Assembly (NCBI GenBank): GCA_021772775.1
Contig: JAJFLH010000040.1
Span: 1-64,000, forward strand
Length of the DNA stretch: 64,000 nucleotides
DNA from: Mariprofundus sp.
GTDB lineage: Bacteria; Pseudomonadota; Zetaproteobacteria; Mariprofundales; Mariprofundaceae
Direction of reading: 5' to 3'
The notes under the pieces are model-generated. The model was not told the DNA's origin and did not search any database. It saw nothing but the letters and a program-made list of their open reading frames with translations. The translations under genes were made by a program, and so were the position numbers. The number at the start of each line of letters is the position of its first letter. The first letter of the stretch is position 1. Of this stretch, positions 7,044-61,027 are shown piece after piece.

Positions 7044-7099
7044 GTCAGCTTGCCCGTTGATGGACTTCATTTGGTGTGATTGATAACGTTCGCAACGTT

Positions 7100-7284
7100 T
7101 TAGGTGCCTGAAGGTTTTTCAACCAAGGGTGAAACGGGAAGTCCGGTGACGTGAAGATCACGAATTCCGGCGCAGCCCCCGCTACTGTAGGCCTGACAAG
7201 AGTGTTCAAAACCACTGGAGTTTTATTGATCCGGGAAGGAGAACAGTTGAGGATGAAGGCAAGCCAGGAGACCGGCCTAAACAT
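7100..7284 (+). ncRNA. Cobalamin (AdoCbl/B12) riboswitch
   Basis: The conserved core elements occur in order: a P2-side AGGTGCCTG, then AAGGGTGAAACGGGAA, the B12-box-type segment GCAGCCCCCGCTACTGT at 7172-7188 and the 3' part GCCAGGAGACCGGCCT at 7263-7278. These are hallmarks of cobalamin riboswitches, which bind adenosyl- or other cobalamins and repress downstream genes. The element sits directly upstream of btuB and the long corrinoid gene run, so the whole run is presumably switched off when B12 is plentiful. Confidence 0.95.
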
Positions 7285-7300
7285 GGAACCTGCGGGTTCC
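7285..7300 (+). promoter_or_regulatory. Hairpin following the riboswitch aptamer
   Basis: GGAACC-tgcg-GGTTCC forms a 6-bp stem immediately 3' of the aptamer. It may belong to the expression platform. No U-tract follows, so it does not look like an intrinsic terminator. The further 140 bases to the start codon carry no feature I can name. Confidence 0.45.
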
Positions 7301-38748: not shown

Positions 38749-38780
38749 ACTGGTTCTTTAATCCGTTCCTAAACATGAAT

Positions 38781-38868
38781 AGCTAACGCGGTAAACCACC
38801 GGAGGCAAAAAGCAGAACGACGGCGAAGTAGTGCTTATTATCGTCTGAGTACATTTACCTTGTTAGCC
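38781..38868 (-). repeat. attC site 6 (distal end of array)
   Basis: The site begins AGCTAAC (38781-38787), which on the minus strand is the R' box GTTAGCT. It ends GTTAGCC (38862-38868). The inner arms GCGGTAAA and ATTTACC pair. The core GCAAAAAGCAGAACGACG matches the sites at 39699 and 47675. Length is 88 bp. Confidence 0.82.
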
Positions 38869-39213
38869 TTACTGCGGTACACACTTACCATAAGAGTCAC
38901 GATCCATATCTATTATTTCTACAGTGATGACTGAAGCAGGAATCTGCAATGCAGGTAAGCCTGATAAGATCACTTTTCCAAGACGCTTTTTGTTATCAGC
39001 ATCCCGCCCCGATTTAATCCGAGCCTGAATATGGATATAAGGACTACTTCCACCTGCATTGGTAAAAGCTCGGAACGGATAGGCGCGCGTTTTAATTTGA
39101 TCAGCTTTAAACAGACCGCTATCTGAAATGGATTGATGTATTGTCCTCAAGAGAAGGTCAACTTCGGCTTCATCAGCCATTTTTTCCTGATATTCAACAA
39201 TAATATGTGGCAC
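38869..39213 (-). CDS. CHMI-like tautomerase in an integron cassette
   Basis: The 114-residue protein begins PHIIVEYQEKMADEAEVDLL and continues VRAYP-like TRAYPFRAFT and HIQARIKSGRDADNKKRLG. It resembles 5-carboxymethyl-2-hydroxymuconate delta-isomerase, a tautomerase fold whose N-terminal Pro is catalytic. It starts with GTG, with AGGAG seven bases upstream, twelve bases from the stop of the lipoprotein gene. The two genes therefore form a two-gene cassette. attC site 6 abuts its stop. The natural substrate is unknown; no aromatic pathway genes are nearby. Confidence 0.8.
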   Translation of the reverse strand: MPHIIVEYQEKMADEAEVDLLLRTIHQSISDSGLFKADQIKTRAYPFRAFTNAGGSSPYIHIQARIKSGRDADNKKRLGKVILSGLPALQIPASVITVEIIDMDRDSYGKCVPQ

Positions 39214-39224
39214 TGATATCTCCT

Positions 39225-39680
39225 TTATTCATTGTCCATTGCTTTAAATTCAGTTCGAATCTGTTCAATTCGTTTTCGGTTTACACCAAGATCTGAATGG
39301 CCAATTCTGGACGCTGATCGAACATGTATGATCCCTTGCTCTGATCCTGTGTCTGGAAAATAAAATTCTACATCATCAACAAAACGGAACACGCTGGAAG
39401 TAAACTCAGCTCTTAAATAATTATCCTCAACTATTTTGATCTTTGATGACTTAAGCTCTTTGAGGATATTCAAAATATGTTTTTTTGCCTCTAATGGCGT
39501 GCCTGTGATATGGATAGGTTCGATAAAGTGCTCTTTATCTATTGCCTGACTGTGAACACAATTTGGTGTTGTTGGACACTCCATCAGTTGACCATTTTCA
39601 ATTCCCAATTTAGGCATCGTTCCTGCACATCCTGTTAAAAGTATTAAACTTGTTAGAATAATCTGAATTTGTCTATTCAT
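39225..39680 (-). CDS. DUF1499-family lipoprotein in an integron cassette
   Basis: The 151-residue protein has a lipoprotein signal (LTSLILLTGC, lipobox LTGC). It then has the DUF1499 pattern ECPTTPNCVHSQA, VDDVEFYFPD and IIHVRSASRIGHSDLGVNR. AGGGA lies upstream of the ATG, which starts 18 bases from the attC R' box, so the cassette carries its own ribosome site. The function is unknown. Confidence 0.85.
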   Translation of the reverse strand: MNRQIQIILTSLILLTGCAGTMPKLGIENGQLMECPTTPNCVHSQAIDKEHFIEPIHITGTPLEAKKHILNILKELKSSKIKIVEDNYLRAEFTSSVFRFVDDVEFYFPDTGSEQGIIHVRSASRIGHSDLGVNRKRIEQIRTEFKAMDNE

Positions 39681-39698
39681 TGTTTATATTCCCTGAGG

Positions 39699-39785
39699 TT
39701 ATAACGTTGCAAATCATCGGTGGAAAAAAGCAGAGTGACAAATGAATTTTTCTTTTTCCGTCCGAGTGTATTTGCCTTATTATAC
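39699..39785 (-). repeat. attC site 5
   Basis: R' side TTATAAC at 39699-39705 and R'' side ATTATAC at 39779-39785 bracket an imperfect palindrome. The arms TTGCAAAT and ATTTGCC pair. The core GGAAAAAAGCAGAGTGAC and the TCCGAGTGTATTTGCCTT stretch are nearly identical to site 1. Length is 87 bp. Confidence 0.87.
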
Positions 39786-39786
39786 A

Positions 39787-40683
39787 TTATTCACTAAGAA
39801 CTTTTCTTAAATAGCGAATACGCTTATCGACAGGCATATACGGCCCATGGTAATTAAAAAACTTTGTAACCGGCCCACTGTCTATTAGGTCGCTACTTTT
39901 GAGTGCTGTTTCAGCTCCTGCGGGATCATATCCAGCGCGAACCATCAAGCGGACTCCAAGTGCATCCGCATCTTTTTCCATGATATTGCGCATTTTGTAG
40001 TTAGCCAGTTCTTTGCCCCTTTCAGGTAAGGTATGTCCCAAAAGGATATGTGCCAATTCATGAGAAATAAAGAATGCGAGTTCGTCATCACGTTTAAGCA
40101 GTTTTGCTGCTCCAAAATCCACAATGATTTCGCTGTTGCGGGCCATTGCCTTGTGTTCATTTGTATCACTCAAGATAAAACTATAATCGCATGCCATATC
40201 TGCAGTGAGGTCCAATGTTAGTTTCTTTTGGTCTCGTAGTATGCCAAGTCGCAGATGTGATGATTGCTGCGCCTCACCTAAGAGCTTTGTAAATTCATCT
40301 GGTGACTTAGTATCAGACCAGCGATTGTCGTTTGCAGAAATAATGACATCGCCCACACGCAGGCCCGCTTTATCCGCAGCACGCTTGGGATCTACATAAG
40401 TAACTATAGGCTGTTTTTTTAGATGAAAAGCCTTGATTACAAGTTTTTTTTGCTCTTCGTTACCTTGCTCTTTCAGAGACATAGGTATGAAGCCATAATA
40501 TGTTTTGAGTTTTGAGCAAATTGGGCTGTTTGCCACAAGAATATTGTGTGTGATTGCTGAAACTCTGTTGAGCTGTGTATATAAGCTGCGTAATCCTTCA
40601 ACTGTCTGAGGAGGAGTATACGTTTTGCTCGATGCACAGCCTGCAATGAACATAATGGCAATAAGGGTCACTGTTTTTAGCAA
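39787..40683 (-). CDS. M48-family lipoprotein metalloprotease with PDZ domain
   Basis: The roughly 298-residue protein has a lipoprotein signal (VTLIAIMFIAGC). A PDZ-like domain (about residues 85-150, YVDPKRAADKAGLRVGDVII) follows, then an M48 peptidase domain with the zinc motif HELAH (FFISHELAHILLGH) and a downstream Glu/Asp region EKDADALGVRLMVRAGYDP. TTG 40683 has AAGGA seven bases upstream and gives a clean lipoprotein signal. The longer frame to 40719 starts inside the attC site. It is probably a BepA/LoiP-like envelope quality-control protease carried as a cassette. Confidence 0.85.
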   Translation of the reverse strand: MLKTVTLIAIMFIAGCASSKTYTPPQTVEGLRSLYTQLNRVSAITHNILVANSPICSKLKTYYGFIPMSLKEQGNEEQKKLVIKAFHLKKQPIVTYVDPKRAADKAGLRVGDVIISANDNRWSDTKSPDEFTKLLGEAQQSSHLRLGILRDQKKLTLDLTADMACDYSFILSDTNEHKAMARNSEIIVDFGAAKLLKRDDELAFFISHELAHILLGHTLPERGKELANYKMRNIMEKDADALGVRLMVRAGYDPAGAETALKSSDLIDSGPVTKFFNYHGPYMPVDKRIRYLRKVLSE

Positions 40684-40707
40684 TATGTTTTCCTTAACTC
40701 GTATTGT

Positions 40708-40767
40708 GTATAACGCCAAACATCAGGGGCAAAGCGAAGCGATATCTCTTGAATGTGTTGCTTATGT
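40708..40767 (-). repeat. attC site 4 (short, degenerate)
   Basis: GTATAACGCCAAACATCAGG at 40708-40727 is a clean minus-strand L'-R' half (GGCGTTATAC). The other half, TTGAATGTGTTGCTTATG at 40750-40767, pairs only partly. About 60 bp long. I call it attC-like because it sits exactly at the 5' boundary of the M48 cassette. Confidence 0.6.
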
Positions 40768-40957
40768 GGAAGACCTTTACCTTGTAGTTTTTAACGAAGT
40801 CTGAGATTTCAAGCTTTGAATCGTGCATGTTATCTCCAGACCTAGCTCAACAGCGTGAGAGATTACTACTGCGAAATAGCCTGTCATCATCAATATTGAT
40901 GATAAAACGTATTTGTTTTGGATATGTTTATTTTTCTTTGAGATAGCGCTGGTGAAT

Positions 40958-41905
40958 TCAGCTTACCCCTTGCTTATATGAGAACTTTACAGGAGTAGAT
41001 AATTTCAAGACTATTTTTCTGGACTCTTCATCAATCAATGTATCACTGACGTAATTCTCAAGAATCCTATTGATCTCTTTCAGATGAGGTATTAAAAGAT
41101 CTTTCTCTTTTGCTTTCATATTATAGTGGTTTATCGATCTTAGTAATTCTATCGAAGCACTGTTTAAACTACTGTTTTCTCTTGGGGTCGGATTATCGTG
41201 GGGCGTTGCTAGCCCTAGTCTCTTCATGACTGCTTGAACCACATCACCTTCGTACTTAAATACAAAAATGCTGTTTTTACCAAACAGTGTTTGGCATTCA
41301 CTGACAAACCCTTGATAGTTTAAATGTTGAGAAAACCACTCAATATTTAACATTTCAGCAAAGGAGAGGTCTTTACCATAACAGGGGTTATTTTCAATTT
41401 GTGGGTTGCGAATACATTGTTTGTAATAGCTTTCAATAAATCCGAGTGGTTCACGAAACCATACCCAGACTTCAATATCGAAGAGTTTACTCAACTCAGA
41501 TAAAATACCTTTTGATTCGTCAGGAAAATCCCACCAATGATTATAAATACCTTCAGATGAGAGGATAATGGTGTGGGTATCTTCTTTAACTTGCGCGATG
41601 ATATTCTTAAAGTTTTGCAGGAAACTTTCCACGTTTGTTGTGACTAAATTCTTCTCAAACCATTGGTGTTTTGGTGCGTTAGGATTTTGTATATTTTCAA
41701 GATTATGCGGGTAAAGAATCCCTTTTCCTCTGAGCTTGCGTTGTTTTTTATGCAGGTAGGTTTGTAAGCTTGTTGTGCCAGTTTTTGGTGTGCCAGCATG
41801 GATGATTAGCTTTATTTTTTGTACGGTTCGTTGCTCTAGTGATTGCTCAAGTGATTTTAATAGCTCAGCCAATGGGTTAGCAAATTGAACATTTGATTTT
41901 TCCAT
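40958..41905 (-). CDS. Sulfotransferase-family protein
   Basis: The 315-residue protein has the 5'-phosphosulfate loop IIHAGTPKTGTTSLQTYLHK (about residues 34-53) and the 3'-phosphate-binding stretch VWVWFREPLGFIESYYKQ (about 151-168). SPEGIYNHWW-like SSEGIYNHWW is also present. These place it in the PAPS-dependent sulfotransferase superfamily. The acceptor is unknown; bacterial members often modify surface glycans. It lies in the array block that lacks clear internal attC sites. attC 4 lies 190 bases beyond its stop, so it may be the gene of that cassette. The 190-base 3' region holds nothing recognisable. Confidence 0.75.
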   Translation of the reverse strand: MEKSNVQFANPLAELLKSLEQSLEQRTVQKIKLIIHAGTPKTGTTSLQTYLHKKQRKLRGKGILYPHNLENIQNPNAPKHQWFEKNLVTTNVESFLQNFKNIIAQVKEDTHTIILSSEGIYNHWWDFPDESKGILSELSKLFDIEVWVWFREPLGFIESYYKQCIRNPQIENNPCYGKDLSFAEMLNIEWFSQHLNYQGFVSECQTLFGKNSIFVFKYEGDVVQAVMKRLGLATPHDNPTPRENSSLNSASIELLRSINHYNMKAKEKDLLIPHLKEINRILENYVSDTLIDEESRKIVLKLSTPVKFSYKQGVS

Positions 41906-42080
41906 GTCGGTATATAAAAACCTCTAAAGTAGGGGGCAAAGAATGGTTACTCTGATCTGAGATTAATGACTAATCCAGACTAAATTGCTCTGACCCGAAA
42001 GGGGTAGTTTTTGTTTGCCTTGTAAGAGGGATTATTTTTGTCATGGGCAAACTCTCTTTTCTATTCTCAACTGAGACTTG

Positions 42081-42156
42081 AATGATCGTTCATGAATGAG
42101 TGTTGGTATATTAACAATGAGTCGTATTGCATAAAAAATATGGACAATCGTTCATA
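42081..42156 (+). promoter_or_regulatory. Repeated ATCGTTCAT motifs upstream of the HTH gene
   Basis: GATCGTTCATGA near 42082 and CAATCGTTCATAT near 42146 are direct copies of a nine-base motif, 65 bases apart. The second lies just before the ribosome site (AGGTGG) of the XRE-like gene. They are candidate operators for autoregulation. The rest of 41906-42164 has an inverted repeat GTTTGCC/GGGCAAAC and no gene. Confidence 0.45.
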
Positions 42157-42164
42157 TTAGGTGG

Positions 42165-42386
42165 ATGGATATGACAAGAACATTAGAAATGAATGATGAG
42201 AACTGGATCAATAATCCATTTGTTCTAGGGCAGCATGTGCGGGCTAAACGGAAGGCTCAAGATTTGACGGAGAAGTCTGGTGTTACCAGTCGTCATATCA
42301 GTGACATAGAAAATGGACTAAAGAATGTTGGTGCTTATACGCTATTTAAAGTGCTGAACAGTCTTGATGTTGCGCTATATATATAG
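42165..42386 (+). CDS. Small XRE/HipB-like helix-turn-helix protein with shortened HTH
   Basis: The 73-residue protein reads GQHVRAKRKAQDLTEKSGVT, then SRHISDIENGLKNVGAYTLF. This matches the XRE/HipB-type DNA-binding fold, but between LT and EKSGV about five residues normally present (of the QxxLA kind) are missing. That would remove much of helix 2, so it may be a damaged antitoxin-like repressor. It is transcribed opposite to the cassette genes. No HipA or other toxin gene is next to it. Confidence 0.65.
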   Translation: MDMTRTLEMNDENWINNPFVLGQHVRAKRKAQDLTEKSGVTSRHISDIENGLKNVGAYTLFKVLNSLDVALYI

Positions 42387-42412
42387 GGTCATATATATAG
42401 TATCTGACCCCT
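42387..42412. terminator. Possible bidirectional terminator hairpin
   Basis: GGGTCA and TGACCC pair around an AT-rich loop immediately after the HTH stop, between two convergent genes. The downstream run is CTGTTGCCTTT. The T tract is poor, so confidence is low. Confidence 0.4.
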
Positions 42413-42431
42413 GTTGCCTTTAGGCATATAA

Positions 42432-43496
42432 TCAGGTTGACTCCTCATCTTTGGACAGAGTAACCCCCATTGCCTGCGCTCGCTTTTTCCACATGCGTCG
42501 AGCATATTGTTGCATGTCGGCTGTCTTGTCGCTTTCATCCATTATCTCTAAGCCAAGCAGAGTTTCCAGAATATCTTCCATGGTGATAATACCCTCCATG
42601 CCTCCATATTCGTCGATGATTACCATGATGTGCGCACGCTGGTTCAGCACTTCGTCAAATGCGTCAGATAATGAGGTTTTGTCTGATAATGTATACAGAT
42701 CGCGTCGATAGGTTTTCAGGGTTTTGTCCGTATTGTCGCGCGCCTGCGCCAGCAATAGATCATCCTTGAGAACAAAGCCGGTGAATTGTTCGTCGTTTTC
42801 CACATAAACCGGAATTCGTGAGAAACGTGAGTCATAGTGTTTCTCGAAATACTTATATACCGTCAGCGATTCGGGTAATGAAAATACTACCGGACGCGGT
42901 GTCATCACGTCGGTGACTACTGTTTCGTGCAGCAGAAACATGTTTTTCAGGATGCGTGATTCTCGCTCCTCTAGCTGCCCTTCCTTCTCGCCGAGGTCAG
43001 CCATGGCGGCAAACTCCTTGCGGCTGAAGCCTTCAATCTTCATGTCTCGTGAGAATCCACGCACCAGTAACTCAGACAGCATTACAAACGGGTATAGTAC
43101 ACGTATCAGGAATTTTAGCCCGTGTGCGGTCACGCCTGCCAGCGCACGCCAGTAAGTTGCCCCCAATGTTTTAGGAATAATCTCTGAAAATACTAGGATC
43201 ATCAACGTCAGTAGTGCAGATACCAACCCGACCCAGGCGTGCCCAAATACCACGGTCGCCTGTGCACCGGCACCAACGGCACCCACAGTGTGAGCTATGG
43301 TATTAAGCGTCAGAATCGCAGCCAGCGGTTTGTTGATATCACTTCTTAGCTCACGCAATAGTGAGCCCGAACTTTTCCCCTCCAGTTCTAGTGCGCTGAT
43401 ATGAGCCGTAGTTACACTTAGCAGCACTGCTTCTGCAATAGAGCACAAAAAGGAAAAGAGCAAGGCGATAGTCACATATGCAATGAGTAAGGTCAT
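42432..43496 (-). CDS. CNNM/CorC-type membrane protein with CBS pair
   Basis: The 354-residue protein has an N-terminal CNNM (DUF21) domain of about 180 residues with several membrane helices (FLCSIAEAVLLSVT, LVFSEIIPKTLGATYW). A pair of CBS domains follows (MTPRPVVFSLPESLTVYKYF, VIIDEYGGMEGIITMEDILE). The usual C-terminal CorC/HlyC transporter-associated domain is lacking. The family is linked to Mg2+ export or resistance. It starts about 55 bases after the mutated attC 3. It is either a cassette passenger or ordinary chromosome caught between array parts. Confidence 0.85.
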   Translation of the reverse strand: MTLLIAYVTIALLFSFLCSIAEAVLLSVTTAHISALELEGKSSGSLLRELRSDINKPLAAILTLNTIAHTVGAVGAGAQATVVFGHAWVGLVSALLTLMILVFSEIIPKTLGATYWRALAGVTAHGLKFLIRVLYPFVMLSELLVRGFSRDMKIEGFSRKEFAAMADLGEKEGQLEERESRILKNMFLLHETVVTDVMTPRPVVFSLPESLTVYKYFEKHYDSRFSRIPVYVENDEQFTGFVLKDDLLLAQARDNTDKTLKTYRRDLYTLSDKTSLSDAFDEVLNQRAHIMVIIDEYGGMEGIITMEDILETLLGLEIMDESDKTADMQQYARRMWKKRAQAMGVTLSKDEEST

Positions 43497-43548
43497 GTTG
43501 GCATAATAATTAGCATAAAAGGAAATGACTCATTCAATAGTGCTGGTT

Positions 43549-43606
43549 GCCTATCGCTCCCATCAACCGCCGCAGAATGCGGTCGCTTGGATGGGCTTGT
43601 TATAAG
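43549..43606 (-). repeat. attC site 3 with mutated R' box
   Basis: Minus-strand R'' is TTATAAC. The arms GCCCATCC and TTGATGGG pair, as do GACCGC and GCGGCGG around ATTCT. The R' box reads GATAGGC where GTTAGGC is expected. Length is 58 bp. It follows the stop of the OLD-like gene closely, as a cassette attC should. Confidence 0.72.
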
Positions 43607-43611
43607 CCGGT

Positions 43612-45393
43612 CTATTTTACAATCACATCAATAATTTCTTGAAGGTCAGTCACTCCTTCAGAAACAGTGAAGCCAGCCTCTAACCATTCGGATTCAGTCA
43701 TTTCGCCAAATACTTCCATATTATTTTTAGCCTTGAAGTTCATTTGTTTTACAGCAAGAATCTTTGATTTGATCTCTTCTTTCATATCAGAGTAATTATC
43801 AATAATGAAATCATCCGTCAGAGTAAATTCGTCTCCAAGTACTCTTTGTATTGCATCCCTATGGTAATAATTTTCGATTTCTCTTTTTCTTAGAACTAGG
43901 AACTCACCTCCCATCTCTTCAATATCACTTTTAAGTTGAACTTTGTTTTCTAACTTTGATTCATAGTCAGTTGCACCCTTGTCACTATCTAGGATGAATA
44001 TGAAGTTTCTGTTTATTTTTGAACACAATCTAGCATTGACAAAAAATTCAACTTGATCACCACCACATGGCACAAATAAAATGTCATCGATATTGGTTGT
44101 TGATAACTTGTTTATGGCGCATTGCCAAAAAAGACAATCACCTTTACCTTCTACAAAAATTATTTTTCTATAGTTATCATTAAGTAAGTTGTAATTTGGT
44201 CTAATACCAAGTTCCTGAATAACAACATCCAATATGTAATTTTCATTTTCATAGTTGAAATATTTAGATAACCCATCTTGTTTTTTAACAACAACTATAT
44301 TGGTGCTTTCTGTTGCTCCAGCAAAAACTGGAGAATGTGTAGTTATTAAAAACTGGCTATCATCAGCAAGATTTAGGATTGATTCGAGAAGTTCATATTG
44401 CAATTCAGGATGTAAGAAAGTTTCAGGCTCTTCGATTCCGAATATAGTATTACCGTTAGAGTTTTTTTGAGCTAAATATTCAAAATATGCAACCATTAAA
44501 AGTCTTTTGAAACCTGTACCTTTGTGTGATATTGGTATATCAAATGACTCAGATTGAAATTTTAAACCTATATCGAATTTTACTAGGTTTTTCCAGTTAC
44601 AGTTTACTTGAGGCTTGATTTCTTCTAAGTCTGGAACATTCTTTTTCATCAAGTTAGCAATGATAGTAAACTCAGTGTCCAGATCACTTTGTACATTGCT
44701 TTCAATTTGGTCAGTTAAAGCTCTATTATCTTCCAGTGATTTTGTGGCTATTGGTTTAAATTGATTTTGAAATTCTGTGGCTCCAACGTTTAAATCCTGC
44801 TCGGCATCGAATAGAAAATAATCAGGGATCTTAATGTCTGGATATTGTTTAGATATATTTTTTAAATATTCATCTGCAAGATATGTGTTTAACGATTTTT
44901 GATAACCCTCAGTATTTTCTTGGATTTTAATTATTTTTGATAGATTTGTAACGCCTCTTCCTGACCTTGAGTAATCAACTTCTAAAGTGTCTAGATACCC
45001 GTTTATTTCAGCTTCTTTTACCCCCCAACAATTCTGTATGTTTTCTTGTACGAAGTCATTGCACGTATAGAGTGCTTCTTTTTTGAGCTTTCCTGCAGGA
45101 GTGAATGAATATTGTTTTGTGATACAAATAAAGCCCTCATTGTCTAGAGCAAGTGGGCTAATACCTTCACTGGGAATAAATCTAATTTTGATTGATGTTT
45201 TAGCTTCGTCTGGGATTCCTTTGTAAACATCATGTGTCGTGAACTTGTCATTAAAGAATGCATCAAGCGATTTGAGAATTGTAGATTTCCCGTTATCATT
45301 CTTCCCTACAAATGTGTTCACACTACCAAACTTTAAATTTTCTAAATGTTCTATTCCTCGATAATAAGAAATAGAAATATCATATATTTTCAT
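43612..45393 (-). CDS. OLD-like AAA ATPase with TOPRIM nuclease domain (cassette 3)
   Basis: The 593-residue protein has an ABC/SMC-type ATPase with Walker A FVGKNDNGKSTILKSLDAF (about residues 28-46), signature-like ISHKGTGFKRLLMVAYFEYL and Walker B FGIEEPETFLHPELQ. A TOPRIM domain (about 405-500) has IFVEGKGDCLFW and FIFILDSDKGA (the Glu and DxD metal motifs). This is the overcoming-lysogenization-defect (OLD) nuclease layout, shared by anti-phage proteins such as the Gabija A subunit. No GajB/UvrD-like helicase is encoded beside it, so single-gene (class 1) OLD action is more likely. Function in defence is inferred. Confidence 0.82.
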   Translation of the reverse strand: MKIYDISISYYRGIEHLENLKFGSVNTFVGKNDNGKSTILKSLDAFFNDKFTTHDVYKGIPDEAKTSIKIRFIPSEGISPLALDNEGFICITKQYSFTPAGKLKKEALYTCNDFVQENIQNCWGVKEAEINGYLDTLEVDYSRSGRGVTNLSKIIKIQENTEGYQKSLNTYLADEYLKNISKQYPDIKIPDYFLFDAEQDLNVGATEFQNQFKPIATKSLEDNRALTDQIESNVQSDLDTEFTIIANLMKKNVPDLEEIKPQVNCNWKNLVKFDIGLKFQSESFDIPISHKGTGFKRLLMVAYFEYLAQKNSNGNTIFGIEEPETFLHPELQYELLESILNLADDSQFLITTHSPVFAGATESTNIVVVKKQDGLSKYFNYENENYILDVVIQELGIRPNYNLLNDNYRKIIFVEGKGDCLFWQCAINKLSTTNIDDILFVPCGGDQVEFFVNARLCSKINRNFIFILDSDKGATDYESKLENKVQLKSDIEEMGGEFLVLRKREIENYYHRDAIQRVLGDEFTLTDDFIIDNYSDMKEEIKSKILAVKQMNFKAKNNMEVFGEMTESEWLEAGFTVSEGVTDLQEIIDVIVK

Positions 45394-45425
45394 TAAACAT
45401 CCTATCTATATGATTTGCACTGAGG

Positions 45426-45523
45426 CTTATAACGCCTTGCTCAGCGGCAATTTAAAGTGGCACGTTTTTGCGAAAGCAAAAAAAGTGACGCTTTAAATTG
45501 TCCGCTGGAGCTATTTGTTATAT
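45426..45523 (-). repeat. attC site 2
   Basis: R' side CTTATAACGCC and R'' side TTGTTATATC enclose long arms, CAGCGGCAATTTAAAG and CTTTAAATTGTCCGCTG. The arms pair with one extrahelical T, as in bona fide attC sites. The hairpin tip contains TTTTTGC-gaaa-GCAAAAA. Length is 98 bp. It is the clearest attC by structure in this window. Confidence 0.92.
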
Positions 45524-45526
45524 CTT

Positions 45527-46327
45527 TTATTCCTCATTCTCCGACATTAATCGAATTTCATCGTCGGTAATTCCATCTCTTCCAACTAACTTATAATGTC
45601 GTTCGTCAACAACTGATAAATGAAAAACATCATTGCTTTCCTCTACGGCTAGCTCAAGGATTGCAACATCATTTTCAGACAAAAACTGTAATGCAATTGG
45701 TTTACAAATAGCATTTGGGTATCGTGCCTTGCAAAACTCAATATCTTGCATAACTTGAACGATTCCAAATCTATCTCCAGGTGATTTAGCTTGGCAAGGT
45801 ATTACAAAATGAGTGCCTTTTTTATTTATGCCAAGGTATACCTCATCAATTTCAATCTGACCAACATTTTGAATTGTAGTTCTAAGGTGGTTTTGAATTG
45901 AATAACAGGTTAAGCCTGAAAAAAGATCTACAAGGCGGTTATATCTAACTTTGGTAAGTAGTGCCTGTTCATCGGTTCCAGGAGCATAGCGTTTTACAAT
46001 TTCAGGAGTTGAATCAGGCACTTTAATTCTTTGCCTGTTATTTGTAGGTTCAATTTTTCCGGGTGCGGCTAACCTGAATTCATAGGAGCCAATTCCTGTT
46101 CCTGTAATTATCCATTCAGAATCAACAGGACACTTTTCCTTAATATTATTTGGTAACTCTTTACGAAACCTATATGAATAAGGTACATCACCTAGATTTT
46201 TAATACGAGCAATGCCAAGGTCATCACATGCTTCAGATAATTCATCTCTATCAAAAGAAACCTTAATTGCTCCTTCACTGTAATTTCTGAAGAAAACTCT
46301 TACAATTACATCGTCATACTTACTCAT
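45527..46327 (-). CDS. Probable type II restriction endonuclease (cassette 2)
   Basis: The 266-residue protein overlaps the stop of the C5 methyltransferase gene by four bases (ATGA). It contains a PD-(D/E)xK-like core: QIEIDEVYLGINKKGTHFVI followed by PCQAK (about residues 160-183). The Asp/Glu and QxK residues could coordinate metal. I do not recognise a named enzyme or recognition site. Because it is paired with a methyltransferase in one cassette, a restriction enzyme is the simplest reading. Confidence 0.72.
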   Translation of the reverse strand: MSKYDDVIVRVFFRNYSEGAIKVSFDRDELSEACDDLGIARIKNLGDVPYSYRFRKELPNNIKEKCPVDSEWIITGTGIGSYEFRLAAPGKIEPTNNRQRIKVPDSTPEIVKRYAPGTDEQALLTKVRYNRLVDLFSGLTCYSIQNHLRTTIQNVGQIEIDEVYLGINKKGTHFVIPCQAKSPGDRFGIVQVMQDIEFCKARYPNAICKPIALQFLSENDVAILELAVEESNDVFHLSVVDERHYKLVGRDGITDDEIRLMSENEE

Positions 46328-47631
46328 GCTGCTTCCTTGTTTAATCTTTTTCTTTTAGGGATCACATCATCAGGAATATCCCAGTATTTTGAAGCTTGAC
46401 CCATATTATAATTTAATAGCTCTTCCTTTTGCGGGTTCAGAATGTAGGTTTCAAACTTATTCGGGTTAAGGTTCATGGCTTTAATAATTTGACATCCTAA
46501 AGATTTTGAAAGAAAAGGTATCACTGCGTTTCCAATTTCTCTGAATCCATGCCAAATTGTATTGTGAAAACGAAACCAATCAGGAAAAGAATGCAACCTA
46601 GCTGCCTCTCGAACTGTTATACACCTAGGAACTGAATAGTGTATTGGTCTAGGCGCAGTAAATGCACCTTTATCACTAGCAGTTCCAGCTCTCAATGTAT
46701 TGCACTGTCCGTTGTCTGCTAGTTTAAAGAATCTACTTATTTTTTCAACAGTTCCAGTAGGAGTGTTTTCAAACCTATTTATAGATTTTTCAGTATGTTT
46801 TGAACCAATATGGCCGTAAACAATATTCGAAACTTGTCTGGTGTGTGTAAGTGAAAACTCACCACTAGGCTTTAAAGAAAAACTATTTCTTAAGCCTGAA
46901 TAATCAAGTTGCAATGAATCTATACCTTGATCGCCCTCTGTATAAGCTTCATGAGCACCAAGATCACTTATGGCTTCGCTACAAGTTGATAGTTGCTTCA
47001 ATCCAATATCAAACAACGAAGGCTCATTTGATTCAAGTTGGCTATGTGTTTGTGAAGGATAAGTTGCTTGTTTTACATCTAACCTCGAACCAATAATAAT
47101 AAGCCTTTTTCTCTTTTGTGGCGCTCCAAAAAGTGATGCGTCGAGAATTGAAATAGGTTTCTCTATGGAATAACCCATATTTTCAAACTCTACGATCAAC
47201 TCTTCTAAAAACTTTATATGCTTTCCAGATGCTATCCCTGGAACATTTTCAAATAAGAAATATTTAGGCTTAATTTTTTTAATCATACGTACATATTCAA
47301 ATACCAATGAATTTCTAGGATCATCAAGCTGTCTTTTTCCTATATGAGAAAACCCTTGGCATGGTGGGCCACCTGCTACTAAATCTATATCACGAGAAAA
47401 CCCTTTAGCTTCTACAGCCTGAAGAAGTTCTTCAGAGGTTAACTTTGAAATATCTTTGCAAATACTCGCGCTGTAGGGGAAATTAAAGTGGTGAACTAAT
47501 GTATGTATAGCATCAAATTCTACAGCTGCGGCAATGTCAAACCCAGCCGCTTCTAAGCCAAGAGACATTCCACCACAGCCAGAAAAAAGATCAATTGCGA
47601 CAGGTCGTTTCATTTTTTTACCCAAATTCAT
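46324..47631 (-). CDS. DNA (cytosine-5-)-methyltransferase (cassette 2)
   Basis: The 435-residue enzyme has motif I AIDLFSGCGGMSLGLEAAGF (about residues 12-31) and motif IV GGPPCQGF with catalytic Cys91. It also has motif VI FLFENVPGI, motif VIII GAPQKRKRLIIIGSR, and motifs IX-X ITVREAARLHSFPDWF and REIGNAVIPFLSKSLG. The target-recognition region lies between VIII and IX (about 200-310) and its site cannot be predicted. It is cotranscribed with the probable nuclease, protecting host DNA. The start could be M1 or M7 (MKRPVAIDL). Confidence 0.92.
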   Translation of the reverse strand: MNLGKKMKRPVAIDLFSGCGGMSLGLEAAGFDIAAAVEFDAIHTLVHHFNFPYSASICKDISKLTSEELLQAVEAKGFSRDIDLVAGGPPCQGFSHIGKRQLDDPRNSLVFEYVRMIKKIKPKYFLFENVPGIASGKHIKFLEELIVEFENMGYSIEKPISILDASLFGAPQKRKRLIIIGSRLDVKQATYPSQTHSQLESNEPSLFDIGLKQLSTCSEAISDLGAHEAYTEGDQGIDSLQLDYSGLRNSFSLKPSGEFSLTHTRQVSNIVYGHIGSKHTEKSINRFENTPTGTVEKISRFFKLADNGQCNTLRAGTASDKGAFTAPRPIHYSVPRCITVREAARLHSFPDWFRFHNTIWHGFREIGNAVIPFLSKSLGCQIIKAMNLNPNKFETYILNPQKEELLNYNMGQASKYWDIPDDVIPKRKRLNKEAA

Positions 47632-47674
47632 TCATTGTACTAAATTCTCGATAATAGCTGGTGTTTTTCTTTTG

Positions 47675-47762
47675 ATATAACGTCGCAAATCACCGGCGGA
47701 AAAAAGCAGAGCGACGAAGGAGCGGCGCTTTTTGCCGTCCGAGTGTATTTGCCTTGTTATAC
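47675..47762 (-). repeat. attC site 1
   Basis: The R' side ATATAAC lies at 47675-47681, and the R'' side GTTATAC at 47756-47762. The arms GTCGCAAAT and ATTTGCC pair, and CCGGCGG-AAAAAAGC faces GCGCTTTTTGCCG. It is nearly identical to site 5 over most of its length. Length is 88 bp. It abuts the stop of the GIY-YIG gene. Confidence 0.92.
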
Positions 47763-47767
47763 CTTGT

Positions 47768-48592
47768 TTAGTTTTTGTTGTAGCCAAATTTACCTCTCGA
47801 AAGAAATACCTCTTTCCAGTAGCTTTCTCTTTCAATTATTACTTTGTCATCTGCTTTCATAGGACGATACTCAAGTAACGATAACCTGAAATTATTTTTT
47901 GCATAATCAAAGCCCTCTGTTTTGATTAGTTTGGTAAGTTCATCATTCCAGCCATGCCCTGTACCAATATAGCAACTCCACCTAGACCAAATACCGGAGT
48001 CACCGTAAGCAGAGCCAATATACTTTTTACCATTTAATTTGTCTGTGATTACATAAACACCTTTCACATTTTTTAATGCCGCCTTCCAGTCTGCATTTTC
48101 ATTTTTAAATATTGGTGTCAATATATTGAAATCATGATTTATGTTTTCATATCCAGGAAACACTTCTCCCGAATAAGGCTGCCTCAGTATTTCTGAGACT
48201 TTCATTTTATCTAAATGGTGTTCCAAGTAAAAAGCTCTTCCTCTGGATGGCTTTTCTAATTTTATTTTCAGTCTTCCAATATAGTCAGAATATTCTATTA
48301 ATTCCTTTATTTCATAGCTGTGGCTATTAGGAACATTATTTCTCTTAATGACTTCATAGATACCCCCAAACAACCACATGTTATTTTCAGGGTAAAAGTC
48401 TATCAATGAAAATATATATTTACGGGAAAATTCATTTTTACTATTCCTCCAAGTATTCCAACCAAACCATTCCTTTTTGTCTCTTACATAAACATCAAGG
48501 GGCTGGTCACCACCATTCCAACGGGCAGCATGAAATTTGTATTTATTTGGTTCTTCAATACTGATGATTTTGGTGATTGGAATATGGCTCAT
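47768..48592 (-). CDS. GIY-YIG nuclease-domain protein (cassette 1)
   Basis: The 274-residue protein has a C-terminal GIY-YIG domain (about residues 168-265). It contains GVYVITDKLNGKKYIGSAYG (the GVY...YIG pair), then SRWSCYIGTGHG and a catalytic Glu candidate in IIERESYWK. The N-terminal 165 residues form a separate domain that I do not recognise (YKFHAARWNGGDQPLDVYV). AAGGA precedes the ATG, which starts about 20 bases from the attI junction. As the first cassette it should be the best expressed. It is a likely restriction or defence nuclease, but the target is unknown. Confidence 0.82.
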   Translation of the reverse strand: MSHIPITKIISIEEPNKYKFHAARWNGGDQPLDVYVRDKKEWFGWNTWRNSKNEFSRKYIFSLIDFYPENNMWLFGGIYEVIKRNNVPNSHSYEIKELIEYSDYIGRLKIKLEKPSRGRAFYLEHHLDKMKVSEILRQPYSGEVFPGYENINHDFNILTPIFKNENADWKAALKNVKGVYVITDKLNGKKYIGSAYGDSGIWSRWSCYIGTGHGWNDELTKLIKTEGFDYAKNNFRLSLLEYRPMKADDKVIIERESYWKEVFLSRGKFGYNKN

Positions 48593-48608
48593 TCATGCTT
48601 CCTTTTGG

Positions 48609-48679
48609 GTATAACAAGCTGAATAGGAGTAATCAAAGTTCCTCATTATTAACTCCTATAGGTGGACATTATTTCCACC
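48609..48679. repeat. attI-side recombination junction of the integron
   Basis: GTATAAC at 48609-48615 reads GTTATAC on the minus strand, identical to the R boxes of the attC sites. It marks the boundary between the first cassette and the attI region. Between it and intI lie a repeated AATAGGAG (48621-48628, 48708-48715), its inverted form ACTCCTAT (48651-48658) and an inverted repeat GGTGGA/TCCACC. Integrase-binding repeats are expected here, but I cannot define them exactly. Confidence 0.7.
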
Positions 48680-48691
48680 ATATTGCATATT
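48661..48691 (+). promoter_or_regulatory. Candidate intI promoter with overlapping operator-like repeat
   Basis: TGGACA (48663-48668) and CATATT (48686-48691) are 17 bases apart. The inverted repeat GGTGGA-cattatt-TCCACC (48661-48679) covers the -35 box and spacer. A repressor bound there would block intI. It does not match the Gram-negative CTGT-N8-ACAG LexA box. Confidence 0.5.
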
Positions 48692-48719
48692 GAGGTTTTA
48701 AAATGGAATAGGAGATACG

Positions 48720-49736
48720 ATGCCTACATATCCATCCAAGGTCAAGCCAGAACATACCTTTCGGCCTCATGCTGCTCGTCTGATGGATCAGGTGAGTGAA
48801 GTTATGCGCTATTATCATTATGGGCGGCGTACTGAAGAGGCCTATTCGTACTGGATTAAAGATTTTATACTTTTTCATCACAAGCGGCATCCTAAAGATA
48901 TGGGGAAATTGGAAGTAGAGTCTTATTTGAGCCATTTGGCGGTGAATAGGAAGGTGGCATCATCAACGCAAAATCAGGCATTTAATGCACTCCTTTTTTT
49001 GTACAATAGTGTTCTTCATCTACCTTTTTCTGATGATGTTGATGCAATCCGTTCGAAAAGAGCGCCGCGCCTGCCTGTTGTTTTAAGTCAAAAGGAAGTG
49101 AACCGCCTTTTCCATGCAATGAAAGGGGAGACGTTATTGATGGCGCGTATCATGTATAGCGGTGGCTTGCGCTTGAATGAACTGCTTCATCTGCGGGTTC
49201 AAGACATTGATTTTGATTATGGATTTTTAACGATTCATGCAGGTAAGGGAGATAAAGATCGTAGCACCTTGCTAGCGACTTCTTTGTATGACGACTTAAA
49301 AGCACATTTAGATGCAGTTCGAACTCTGTTTAATCTTGATGTTGAACAAGGTGTTGTAAATGTCTGGCTGCCAGGAGCTTTGGCAAGGAAGTATCCGAAT
49401 GCTTCAAAGTCATGGGAGTGGCAGTTTGTCTTTCCATCCAAAGTGCTATCAAAAGACCCTGAAAATGGAGAGCTGCGCCGTCATCATGTGAATCAATCCA
49501 ATTTACAAAAAGCAATAAAGAGGGCGAAAGAAAAAGCAGATATTAATAAACGCGTAACATCACATACTCTGCGCCACTCTTTTGCCACACACTTGCTTGA
49601 ATCAGGTACTAATATTCGTGTGGTGCAAAAGTTGCTTGGCCATGCCGATGTAAAAACTACGGAGATTTACACACATGTGCTGCAACAGAATCTTGGCGCA
49701 GTTATAAGTCCACTTGATTGTTTAGAGGAGTCCTGA
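48720..49736 (+). CDS. intI: Integron integrase (IntI-type tyrosine recombinase)
   Basis: The 338-residue tyrosine recombinase catalyses attI x attC and attC x attC recombination. The catalytic residues are R151 (SGGLRLNELL), H282 and R285 (HTLRHSF), H308 (LLGHADVKTTEIYTH) and the nucleophile Y317. The integron-specific extra segment ARKYPNASKSWEWQFVFPS lies around residues 223-241 and separates IntI from XerCD. The N-terminal half has the core-binding domain (MRYYHYGRRTEEAYSYWIKDF). AATAGGAG precedes the ATG. The stop is 3 bases before a methyltransferase gene, and cassettes run the other way from attI. Confidence 0.95.
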   Translation: MPTYPSKVKPEHTFRPHAARLMDQVSEVMRYYHYGRRTEEAYSYWIKDFILFHHKRHPKDMGKLEVESYLSHLAVNRKVASSTQNQAFNALLFLYNSVLHLPFSDDVDAIRSKRAPRLPVVLSQKEVNRLFHAMKGETLLMARIMYSGGLRLNELLHLRVQDIDFDYGFLTIHAGKGDKDRSTLLATSLYDDLKAHLDAVRTLFNLDVEQGVVNVWLPGALARKYPNASKSWEWQFVFPSKVLSKDPENGELRRHHVNQSNLQKAIKRAKEKADINKRVTSHTLRHSFATHLLESGTNIRVVQKLLGHADVKTTEIYTHVLQQNLGAVISPLDCLEES

Positions 49737-49739
49737 GGG

Positions 49740-58990: not shown

Positions 58991-61027
58991 ATGTCTCAAA
59001 CTATTGAACCAGCACAGGAAGTGGTGGCAGCTACAGCAGTAGCTGATACTGTAGCAGAGGTAAAGCCACGTCGTCGTGGTCGTCCGCCTAAGTCTGCCTC
59101 TAAGCCTGCAAGCGTGCCTGAAGAGAGCAAAGCCGTAGAAGAAAAAAATGTGAAAAAAACAGTTTCGGCTGATAAGCCTGCGCTAAAAGAAAAGACCACT
59201 GTAAGAAAACGGGCAGTAAAAAAACCAGTTAAAGATCCAGAACAAAAGCCTGAGGCTGTGAAAGCAGCGCCTGTGAGAAAGGCTAAGTCTGTGAAAGTTG
59301 CGTCTGAAAAAAAGGTTGAGGCTGTGAAAGCAGCGCCTGTGAAAAAGGCTGAGGCTGTGAAAGTTGCAGCTGAGAAACAGGCTGAGAGTGTGAAGGTTGC
59401 ACCTGAAAAAAAGGTTGAACCTGTGAAAGTGGCGGTAGCTACTGAGGGTAAAGTCGACTCTGGAGAAAAACCACTCAGCGAAGAGAAACCACGTCGCCGT
59501 GCTCGACCTAAGAAGCCTGCTGCGAAGAGTGACGCAGTGAACGATGGACAGGGTAATGTTGCTGAAAAAACAACGGCATCTGCGGAACACAAAGATAAGG
59601 CTGAAGCTACTTCGAAAGATGAACATCAGAATGCTGGCTCTGAACAAGGGCGTCGTAACCGCTGGAAGAAGGGTGATCGCAACAATAACAACAGTAACAA
59701 TCACAATAATAAACGTGGTCGCCGTGATGATCAGGATGAGAAAGTATCTGATGAAATGCAGGGTGTCTCTCTACATCTGAAAGAGATATCGGCCAAAACA
59801 CCGACCGAATTGGTGGAGCTGGCAGACTCTTATGGTCTTGAGAATGTGGCCGGCCTACGTAAGCAGGAGCAGGTTGCAGCTATTCTCAGAGCCCATGGTC
59901 TGCGCTGTGGCACGATTTATAGTGAAGGCGTGTTGGAAATTTTACCGGATGGCTTTGGTTTCTTGCGTTCAGCTGATGATAATTATCTATCTGGACAAGA
60001 TGATGTGTATGTCTCATCACACCAGATTCGCCGCTATTTCCTGCGTAAGGGTGATACTGTTTCCGGTGAAATCAGACCTCCGCGTAGGGGTGAAAAATAT
60101 TTTGCACTGAAGAGTGTTGAGACTACCAATGGCGAATCGCCAGAAGTATCACGTACTAAAGTGTTGTTTGATAATCTCACACCATTGTATCCGGATGAAC
60201 GTTTGCATATGGAAATTGAAAACCCAACACGAAAAGATATCACGGGTCGAATAATTGATATCGTATCACCGATAGGGAAGGGGCAGCGTGCGCTGTTGGT
60301 GGCACCGCCGCGTACGGGTAAAACCGTGATGATGCAGTCAATTGCACATTCAATTGAAGCCAATCACCCTGAAGCAGTATTGATGGTGTTACTGATTGAT
60401 GAACGCCCTGAAGAAGTGACTGATATGAAACGTTCTGTGAAGGGAGAGGTGGTTTCATCTACCTTTGACGAGCCTGCACAGCGTCATGTGCAGGTATCTG
60501 AAATGGTTATCGAGAAGGCCAAACGACTGGTTGAGCATGGCAAGGATGTGATTATTCTGCTTGATTCGATTACGCGGTTGGCACGTGCTTATAACACTGT
60601 GGTTCCATCTTCAGGCAAAATCTTGACCGGTGGTGTGGATGCTAATGCATTGCATAGGCCTAAACGTTTCTTTGGTGCAGCCCGTAATATTGAAGGTGGT
60701 GGTTCATTGACCATTATTGCGACGGCTCTGGTTGAAACCGGTTCGAAGATGGATGAAGTGATCTTCGAAGAGTTTAAAGGTACTGGTAATATGGAGATCA
60801 AGCTGGATCGTAAACTCACTGATAAACGTGTCTTTCCGTCGATCGATATTGCGCCATCGGGTACACGTAAGGAAGAGCTGCTTACTCCTCGTGATGATCT
60901 GCAGAAGGTCTGGATCTTACGAAAAATTCTTTCGCCGATGCACGCTGTTGATGCGATGGAGTTTTTGATCGATAAATTGAGTCCAACCAAAAACAATGCC
61001 GAATTTTTTGATCGCATGAATCAGTAA
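58991..61027 (+). CDS. rho: Transcription termination factor Rho with long N-terminal extension
   Basis: The 678-residue protein has a core from about residue 261 to the end (418 residues) that matches ordinary Rho. It has a Rho N-terminal helical domain, an RNA-binding CSD ([16 protein letters not shown]), a P-loop APPRTGKT at 438-445, and [12 protein letters not shown] and [12 protein letters not shown]. The preceding 260 residues are unusual. They contain AT-hook-like RRRGRPPK at 27-34 and RRRARPKK at 168-175, about six 11-residue Val-Lys-Ala/Glu-Lys repeats at 89-149, and an Asn-rich run at 231-240 flanked by basic residues. Such disordered extensions are known in some phyla and tune RNA binding or phase behaviour. 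Confidence 0.95.

What the first reader, a model, noticed from the sequence alone, without database searches (positions are those of the whole stretch)
43555..48614. The three integrase-proximal cassettes all encode putative anti-DNA systems
In order from attI: a GIY-YIG nuclease, a C5 methyltransferase with a PD-(D/E)xK-like partner, and an OLD-like ATPase-TOPRIM protein. Proximal cassettes are the newest and best expressed. An array that gathers DNA-targeting enzymes would be a compact, reshufflable defence island. Recent work shows integrons can carry phage-defence cassettes; this set looks like an environmental example.
Basis: partly seen in the sequence, partly recalled or inferred. Interest (0 to 1): 0.88.

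Follow-up and report, generated by a model that had tools for sequence, protein, structure and literature searches.

The report
Integron carrying three adjacent phage-defence cassettes
A gene-capturing element (integron) in a Mariprofundus-type marine bacterium carries, right next to its integrase, three gene cassettes that each match a known kind of anti-virus defence, and relatives of the first cassette sit beside other defence genes in integrons of unrelated bacteria, so such arrays look like small swappable defence islands.

Summary
An intact integron integrase (48720-49736 +) adjoins attI. Three cassettes follow on the minus strand, with crossover points at 48615|48614, 47681|47680, 45433|45432 and 43555|43554.

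Cassette 1 is a GIY-YIG protein matching UzuA of the Uzume system (PADLOC E 3e-50). Cassette 2 is a Type II restriction-modification pair (E 3e-154 and 3e-98). Cassette 3 is an ATPase-TOPRIM protein of the OLD superfamily, between Class 1 OLD and fused PARIS, so its target may be tRNA rather than DNA.

The genus is Mariprofundus. A congener has the empty chromosomal site, so 38749-49739 is one inserted integron. The UzuA cassette recurs (90% DNA identity), attC-flanked, in M. ferrooxydans PV-1 in an array with PD-T7-4 and Abi_alpha cassettes. Elsewhere, attC-linked UzuA relatives neighbour Thoeris ThsB (Fimbriimonadaceae), CBASS (Elusimicrobia) and OLD (Chromohalobacter).

Integrons as defence stores are already known in Vibrio, so the kind is not new. 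The host group and the recurrence of UzuA cassettes near other defence genes appear new in what I could search. Expression and antiviral activity are untested.

The parts
48720..49736 (+). intI, integron integrase, 338 aa, intact
   Evidence: TIGR02249 438 bits, cut-off 265
48600..48719 (-). attI region with crossover CAGCTTG|TTATACC at 48615|48614
   Evidence: sequence; partly alignable with the attI region of congener G011
47681..48614 (-). cassette 1 (934 bp), ends set by G|TT crossovers
   Evidence: sequence; same cassette in PV-1, 90% DNA identity over 944 bp
47768..48592 (-). UzuA (Uzume), GIY-YIG nuclease, 274 aa
   Evidence: PADLOC PDLC03973 E 2.9e-50; catalytic residues Y180, Y191, R204, E256 invariant in 25 relatives
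47675..47762 (-). attC1
   Evidence: bottom-strand hairpin -22.1 kcal/mol, z -4.2
45433..47680 (-). cassette 2 (2248 bp)
   Evidence: G|TT crossovers in attC1 and attC2
46324..47631 (-). C5 cytosine DNA methyltransferase, Type II R-M, 435 aa
   Evidence: PF00145 E 4e-66; PDLC03326 E 3.2e-154
45527..46327 (-). Type II restriction endonuclease, 266 aa, overlaps the methyltransferase by ATGA
   Evidence: PDLC03404 E 2.7e-98; invariant E159, D161, Q179, K181
45427..45523 (-). attC2
   Evidence: bottom-strand hairpin -30.3 kcal/mol, z -8.2
43555..45432 (-). cassette 3 (1878 bp)
   Evidence: crossovers G|TT at attC2 and G|AT at attC3
43612..45393 (-). ABC ATPase-TOPRIM protein, OLD superfamily / AriAB-like, 593 aa
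   Evidence: PDLC02979 AriA E 2.7e-33, PDLC02358 Old E 1.1e-23; nearest solved structure 6p74 Class 1 OLD E 2.2e-15
43549..43605 (-). attC3, degenerate (R' GATAGGC)
   Evidence: sequence; weak fold
39699..39791 (-). distal attC after an M48/PDZ peptidase gene (39787-40719)
   Evidence: repeat of attC1; pattern match
38781..38868 (-). distal attC after DUF1499 and CHMI-like genes (38869-39680), last before the SPFH gene
38749..49739 (.). whole integron island between the SPFH gene and a methyltransferase-like gene
   Evidence: these two genes are adjacent in congener G014 and flank another intI in G011

Best explanation
This is a small chromosomal integron of a Mariprofundus species whose three integrase-proximal cassettes form a compact, exchangeable antiviral set. 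Cassette 1 is an Uzume (UzuA) GIY-YIG nuclease; most likely its N-terminal domain recognises a feature of invading DNA and its C-terminal domain cuts it. Cassette 2 is a complete Type II restriction-modification pair: the methyltransferase marks host cytosines and the endonuclease cuts unmarked DNA. Cassette 3 is a stand-alone ATPase-TOPRIM nuclease: the ATPase senses infection and the TOPRIM domain cuts nucleic acid, phage DNA as in OLD or tRNA as in PARIS. IntI adds cassettes at attI and can excise and reinsert them, so the set can be reshuffled; cassette 3 is probably less mobile because its attC is mutated. Shown here: the integron anatomy, family membership by profile, conserved catalytic residues, presence of the same UzuA cassette in two different arrays, and defence neighbours in other arrays. 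Inferred: antiviral activity, expression, what each nuclease recognises, and recent acquisition.
For: Integrase over the curated cut-off; two strong attC sites with exact crossovers; empty site in a congener; low G+C of cassettes, 33-36% against 47-48% in the flanks; PADLOC matches for all three cassettes; invariant catalytic residues; the UzuA cassette with its attC in PV-1 beside PD-T7-4 and Abi_alpha cassettes; UzuA relatives followed by attC in 7-9 of 27 loci against 7-9 of 159 other gene ends in the same loci and 0.4-1.2% of shuffles; ThsB, CBASS and OLD genes next to attC-linked UzuA relatives elsewhere.
Against: No activity or expression data. No promoter stands out from shuffles. The downstream attC of cassette 3 is degenerate. 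The restriction enzyme fold could not be confirmed. The array of congener G011 has few defence matches. The other arrays were found by searching with UzuA, so they are not an unbiased sample.
Confidence: 0.77

Rival explanations
1. The third cassette is a single-polypeptide PARIS (AriA-AriB fusion): the ATPase senses a phage protein and activates a TOPRIM tRNase that stops translation. The set is then defensive but not purely DNA-targeting.
For: Best PADLOC match is AriA over the whole ATPase (E 2.7e-33); the isolated TOPRIM half matches AriB (E 1.2e-6) and DUF4435 (E 1.8e-5) better than the OLD TOPRIM (E 5.5e-4). Fused PARIS proteins are known (PMC12409363; PMC10568477).
Against: Nearest solved structure by sequence is a Class 1 OLD, and a profile of its relatives also scores OLD and GajA far above AriA. 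Neither DUF4435 nor the OLD TOPRIM model reaches its gathering score.
Confidence: 0.4
2. The three-in-a-row grouping is a coincidence: integrons sample mobile genes, mobile genes are rich in nucleases, and this array simply happened to collect three.
For: Distal genes of the same array match no defence family strongly, and congener G011's array has only weak matches.
Against: Published base rates make three in a row unlikely (PMC12444791, PMC12409362); PV-1 shows a second, different defence-rich array sharing the UzuA cassette, and further arrays with UzuA hold other defence genes.
Confidence: 0.25
3. Cassette 1 is a selfish GIY-YIG endonuclease of the homing type rather than a defence nuclease.
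For: Its catalytic domain resembles that of I-TevI in sequence and predicted fold, and TIGR01453 (group I intron endonuclease) matches weakly.
Against: UzuA profiles score 169 bits over the whole protein against 22 bits for homing endonucleases; a conserved N-terminal domain absent from I-TevI is shared by all 25 relatives; no intron is present, and the gene sits in a cassette.
Confidence: 0.08

Closest known systems
Sedentary chromosomal integrons of Vibrio as stores of antiphage systems (Darracq 2025, Getz 2025; read through the review PMC12409362)
   Same: Integrase, attI, attC-bounded cassettes, several of them antiphage; defence systems of one or two genes.
   Different: Small array in a Zetaproteobacterium rather than a very large Vibrio array; the three proximal cassettes all match named systems, and two are larger than usual for cassettes (1.9 and 2.2 kb); activity not tested here.
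Uzume (UzuA), a defence system of unknown mechanism (PMC12926258)
   Same: Full-length profile match, GIY-YIG active site.
   Different: Here and in several relatives it is an integron cassette; elsewhere it is often on plasmids.
Type II restriction-modification systems of the PDLC03326/PDLC03404 kind on plasmids and in viral contigs
   Same: Methyltransferase then endonuclease, overlapping genes.
   Different: Carried as one cassette between attC sites; recognition site unknown.
Class 1 OLD (T. scotoductus OLD, 6p74) and PARIS AriA/AriB
   Same: ABC ATPase with TOPRIM; single gene.
   Different: Sequence lies between the two; cassette-borne. Class 1 OLD genes were described as not being near other defence genes (PMC10568477), unlike here.
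GIY-YIG cassette (orf6) of an Aeromonas class 4-like integron (PMC10609294)
   Same: A GIY-YIG nuclease carried as an integron cassette.
   Different: Interpreted there as repair or recombination; whether it is a UzuA protein was not checked.

Membership tests
Integron | Integrase of the IntI family | tested here: met
   TIGR02249 438 bits, cut-off 265
Integron | attC sites with conserved boxes and a bottom-strand hairpin bounding the cassettes | tested here: met
   attC1 and attC2 z -4.2 and -8.2; attC3 degenerate
Integron | attI next to intI as entry point | tested here: inconclusive
   crossover CAGCTTG|TTATACC in place; recombination not testable here
Integron | Cassettes vary at a fixed chromosomal site | tested here: met
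   empty site in G014, other cassettes in G011
Uzume | Single UzuA protein, full-length profile match | tested here: met
   E 2.9e-50, residues 15-274 on model positions 14-278 of 278
Uzume | Antiphage activity | not testable with these tools
   needs phage challenge
Type II restriction-modification | DNA methyltransferase next to a restriction endonuclease | tested here: met
   PDLC03326 E 3.2e-154 and PDLC03404 E 2.7e-98, overlapping genes
Type II restriction-modification | PD-(D/E)xK or other known nuclease fold | tested here: inconclusive
   invariant E/D...QxK motif; model poor, hits not significant
Type II restriction-modification | Both enzymes act on the same site | not testable with these tools
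   needs methylome and cleavage assay
Class 1 OLD | ABC ATPase and TOPRIM in one protein with intact Walker A and TOPRIM E, DxD residues | tested here: met
   G30, K36, S37, E415, D469, D471 invariant in eight sequences
Class 1 OLD | OLD-type TOPRIM domain | tested here: inconclusive
   OLD-like TOPRIM below gathering score; DUF4435/AriB scores better on the isolated half
PARIS | AriA ATPase plus AriB (DUF4435) TOPRIM, separate or fused | tested here: inconclusive
   AriA E 2.7e-33, AriB E 1.2e-6 and DUF4435 E 1.8e-5 but below gathering score
Gabija | GajB helicase next to GajA | tested here: not met
   no helicase gene in the array

The most novel reading that the evidence does not exclude
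Integrons in several phyla, outside Vibrio and clinical bacteria, act as dedicated defence islands, with UzuA-type GIY-YIG cassettes as a recurrent member: beside R-M and OLD here, PD-T7-4 and Abi_alpha in PV-1, ThsB in Fimbriimonadaceae, CBASS in Elusimicrobia and OLD in Chromohalobacter. UzuA would be a defence family spread by integrons as well as plasmids, with an exchangeable N-terminal recognition domain.
Probability: 0.35. Interest if true: 0.72.

Novelty: new member of a known kind. Interest (0 to 1): 0.6.

Why it matters
It extends the integron-as-defence-store idea from Vibrio to an iron-oxidising marine lineage, with named, testable systems in the first three positions rather than small unknown proteins. 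It gives an orphan system (Uzume, mechanism unknown) a way of spreading and a panel of natural variants. It also offers a test of whether integrons can deliver a whole restriction-modification pair safely, and whether one array gives layered protection.

Tried and rejected
Gabija for cassette 3: rejected, no helicase partner. Homing endonuclease for cassette 1: disfavoured by profile scores. Naming the restriction specificity: not possible; no PDB relative, plasmid relatives annotated only 'endonuclease'. Structure of the restriction enzyme: model too poor, hits not significant. A PUA-like recognition domain in the UzuA N-terminus: only very weak hits to Lon N-terminal domains; the Elusimicrobia relative has a different N-terminus that looks EVE-like by eye but has no Pfam or PDB support; kept as a lead only. 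Close relatives of cassette 3: none in viral contigs or at E 1e-30 in 397 other genomes of the phylum. My first attC detectors were too strict and were replaced. Papers: no paper in the library joins Uzume with GIY-YIG; the original Vibrio and mobile-integron papers are not held and were read only through reviews.

Full report
The integron. The window belongs to a genome (G000, contig 34) of genus Mariprofundus: the tool places G003 in the same genus, and G003's UzuA contig has the same length and coordinates as NZ_DS022294.1 of M. ferrooxydans PV-1. The gene at 48720-49736 (+) is an integron integrase well over the curated cut-off. On the minus strand follow attI and a row of genes separated by attC sites. 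attC1 (47675-47762) and attC2 (45427-45523) fold into imperfect hairpins far more stable than shuffles, the bottom strand better than the top. attC3 (43549-43605) has a mutated R' box, GATAGGC, and its bottom strand folds less well. Two further attC sites, repeats of attC1, close distal cassettes at 39.7 and 38.8 kb.

The insertion. In congener G014 the SPFH gene and the methyltransferase-like gene that flank the interval here are adjacent. In G011 the same genes flank another intI with other cassettes, including a HigBA-like pair. So 38749-49739 is one integron island at a fixed chromosomal site. Cassettes 1-3 are 33-36% G+C against 47-48% in the flanks, foreign by composition.

Cassette 1. 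The 274-aa protein matches PADLOC UzuA (E 2.9e-50) over its whole length; homing-endonuclease profiles score far lower. In 25 sequences from many phyla the GIY-YIG catalytic residues Y180, Y191, R204 and E256 are invariant. The predicted structure (pLDDT 83) matches the I-TevI catalytic domain and, weakly, PD-T4-3, a 5hmC-specific restriction enzyme. The N-terminal 165 residues have no confident match. Uzume is listed as a defence system of unknown mechanism (PMC12926258).

Cassette 2. A C5 methyltransferase and a Type II restriction endonuclease overlap by ATGA. Relatives keep the same order on Paracoccus and E. coli plasmids and in other genomes; the endonuclease also occurs in viral contigs. 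The endonuclease has an invariant E/D...QxK motif, but its fold could not be confirmed and its site is unknown.

Cassette 3. The 593-aa protein has an ABC ATPase and a TOPRIM domain with the key residues conserved. Its nearest solved structure by sequence is the Class 1 OLD of Thermus scotoductus, but the ATPase scores best with AriA and the isolated TOPRIM half with AriB. The literature notes that fused AriAB and Class 1 OLD are not clearly separate (PMC10568477). AriB cuts tRNA (PMC12409363), so 'anti-DNA' is not secured for this cassette.

The wider pattern. PV-1 has no integron integrase over the cut-off but holds a row of attC-flanked cassettes at another locus: a PD-T7-4 protein (E 2.4e-74), a 175-aa protein, the same UzuA cassette (90% DNA identity over 944 bp including the attC) and an Abi_alpha protein. 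Of 27 UzuA relatives found in named genomes, 7 to 9 have an attC directly after the gene, against 7 to 9 of 159 other gene ends in the same loci (some of these are themselves cassette genes) and 0.4-1.2% of shuffles. Neighbours in such arrays include ThsB of Thoeris next to intI in a Fimbriimonadaceae genome, a CBASS phospholipase and cyclase in an Elusimicrobia genome, an OLD protein in Chromohalobacter marismortui, and a DUF3223 (HamC-like) protein in a Methylococcaceae genome. Five of ten of the genomes checked hold an integron integrase over the cut-off. This is a handful of arrays selected for UzuA, several of them metagenome bins, not a survey.

Novelty. Integrons as defence stores are established in Vibrio and in mobile integrons (PMC12409362, PMC12444791), so this is a new member of a known kind. 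The searches I ran in the library turned up no paper linking UzuA with integrons, and only two papers mention both Mariprofundus and integrons, each naming Mariprofundus once. The key subscription papers could not be read. All statements about activity, expression and recognition are inference.

Noticed in passing
40761-43548: Between attC3 and the next recognisable attC lie a CNNM/CBS transporter gene (48% G+C, like the chromosome, but only 28-30% identical to its best relatives in the genus), a small HTH gene on the other strand and a sulfotransferase-like gene without Pfam match; no attC was recognised between them.
   Followed up: partly
L076:8850-12203: M. ferrooxydans PV-1 has an attC-flanked cassette row without a nearby integrase: PD-T7-4, a 175-aa protein, UzuA, Abi_alpha.
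   Followed up: yes
L062:2806-7800: Elusimicrobia genome: attC-separated HNH gene, a GIY-YIG protein with a different N-terminus from other UzuA proteins, and a CBASS phospholipase-cyclase pair followed by an attC.
   Followed up: partly
L056:1362-4810: Fimbriimonadaceae genome: intI, then a Thoeris ThsB gene with a second gene, an attC and a UzuA cassette.
   Followed up: partly
L036:1240-2320: The UzuA relative on a small contig labelled Neomarinimicrobiota lies between two near-identical direct repeats of about 80 bases, without an attC.
   Followed up: no
L101:1189-3774: The Paracoccus plasmid relative of cassette 2 also carries a very-short-patch-repair endonuclease gene before the methyltransferase; the cassette here has none.
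   Followed up: no
59244-59434: Four tandem 33-base repeats in a coding-like stretch.
   Followed up: no
7085-7293: Cobalamin riboswitch (Rfam RF00174, 104 bits), the only Rfam match in the window.
   Followed up: no
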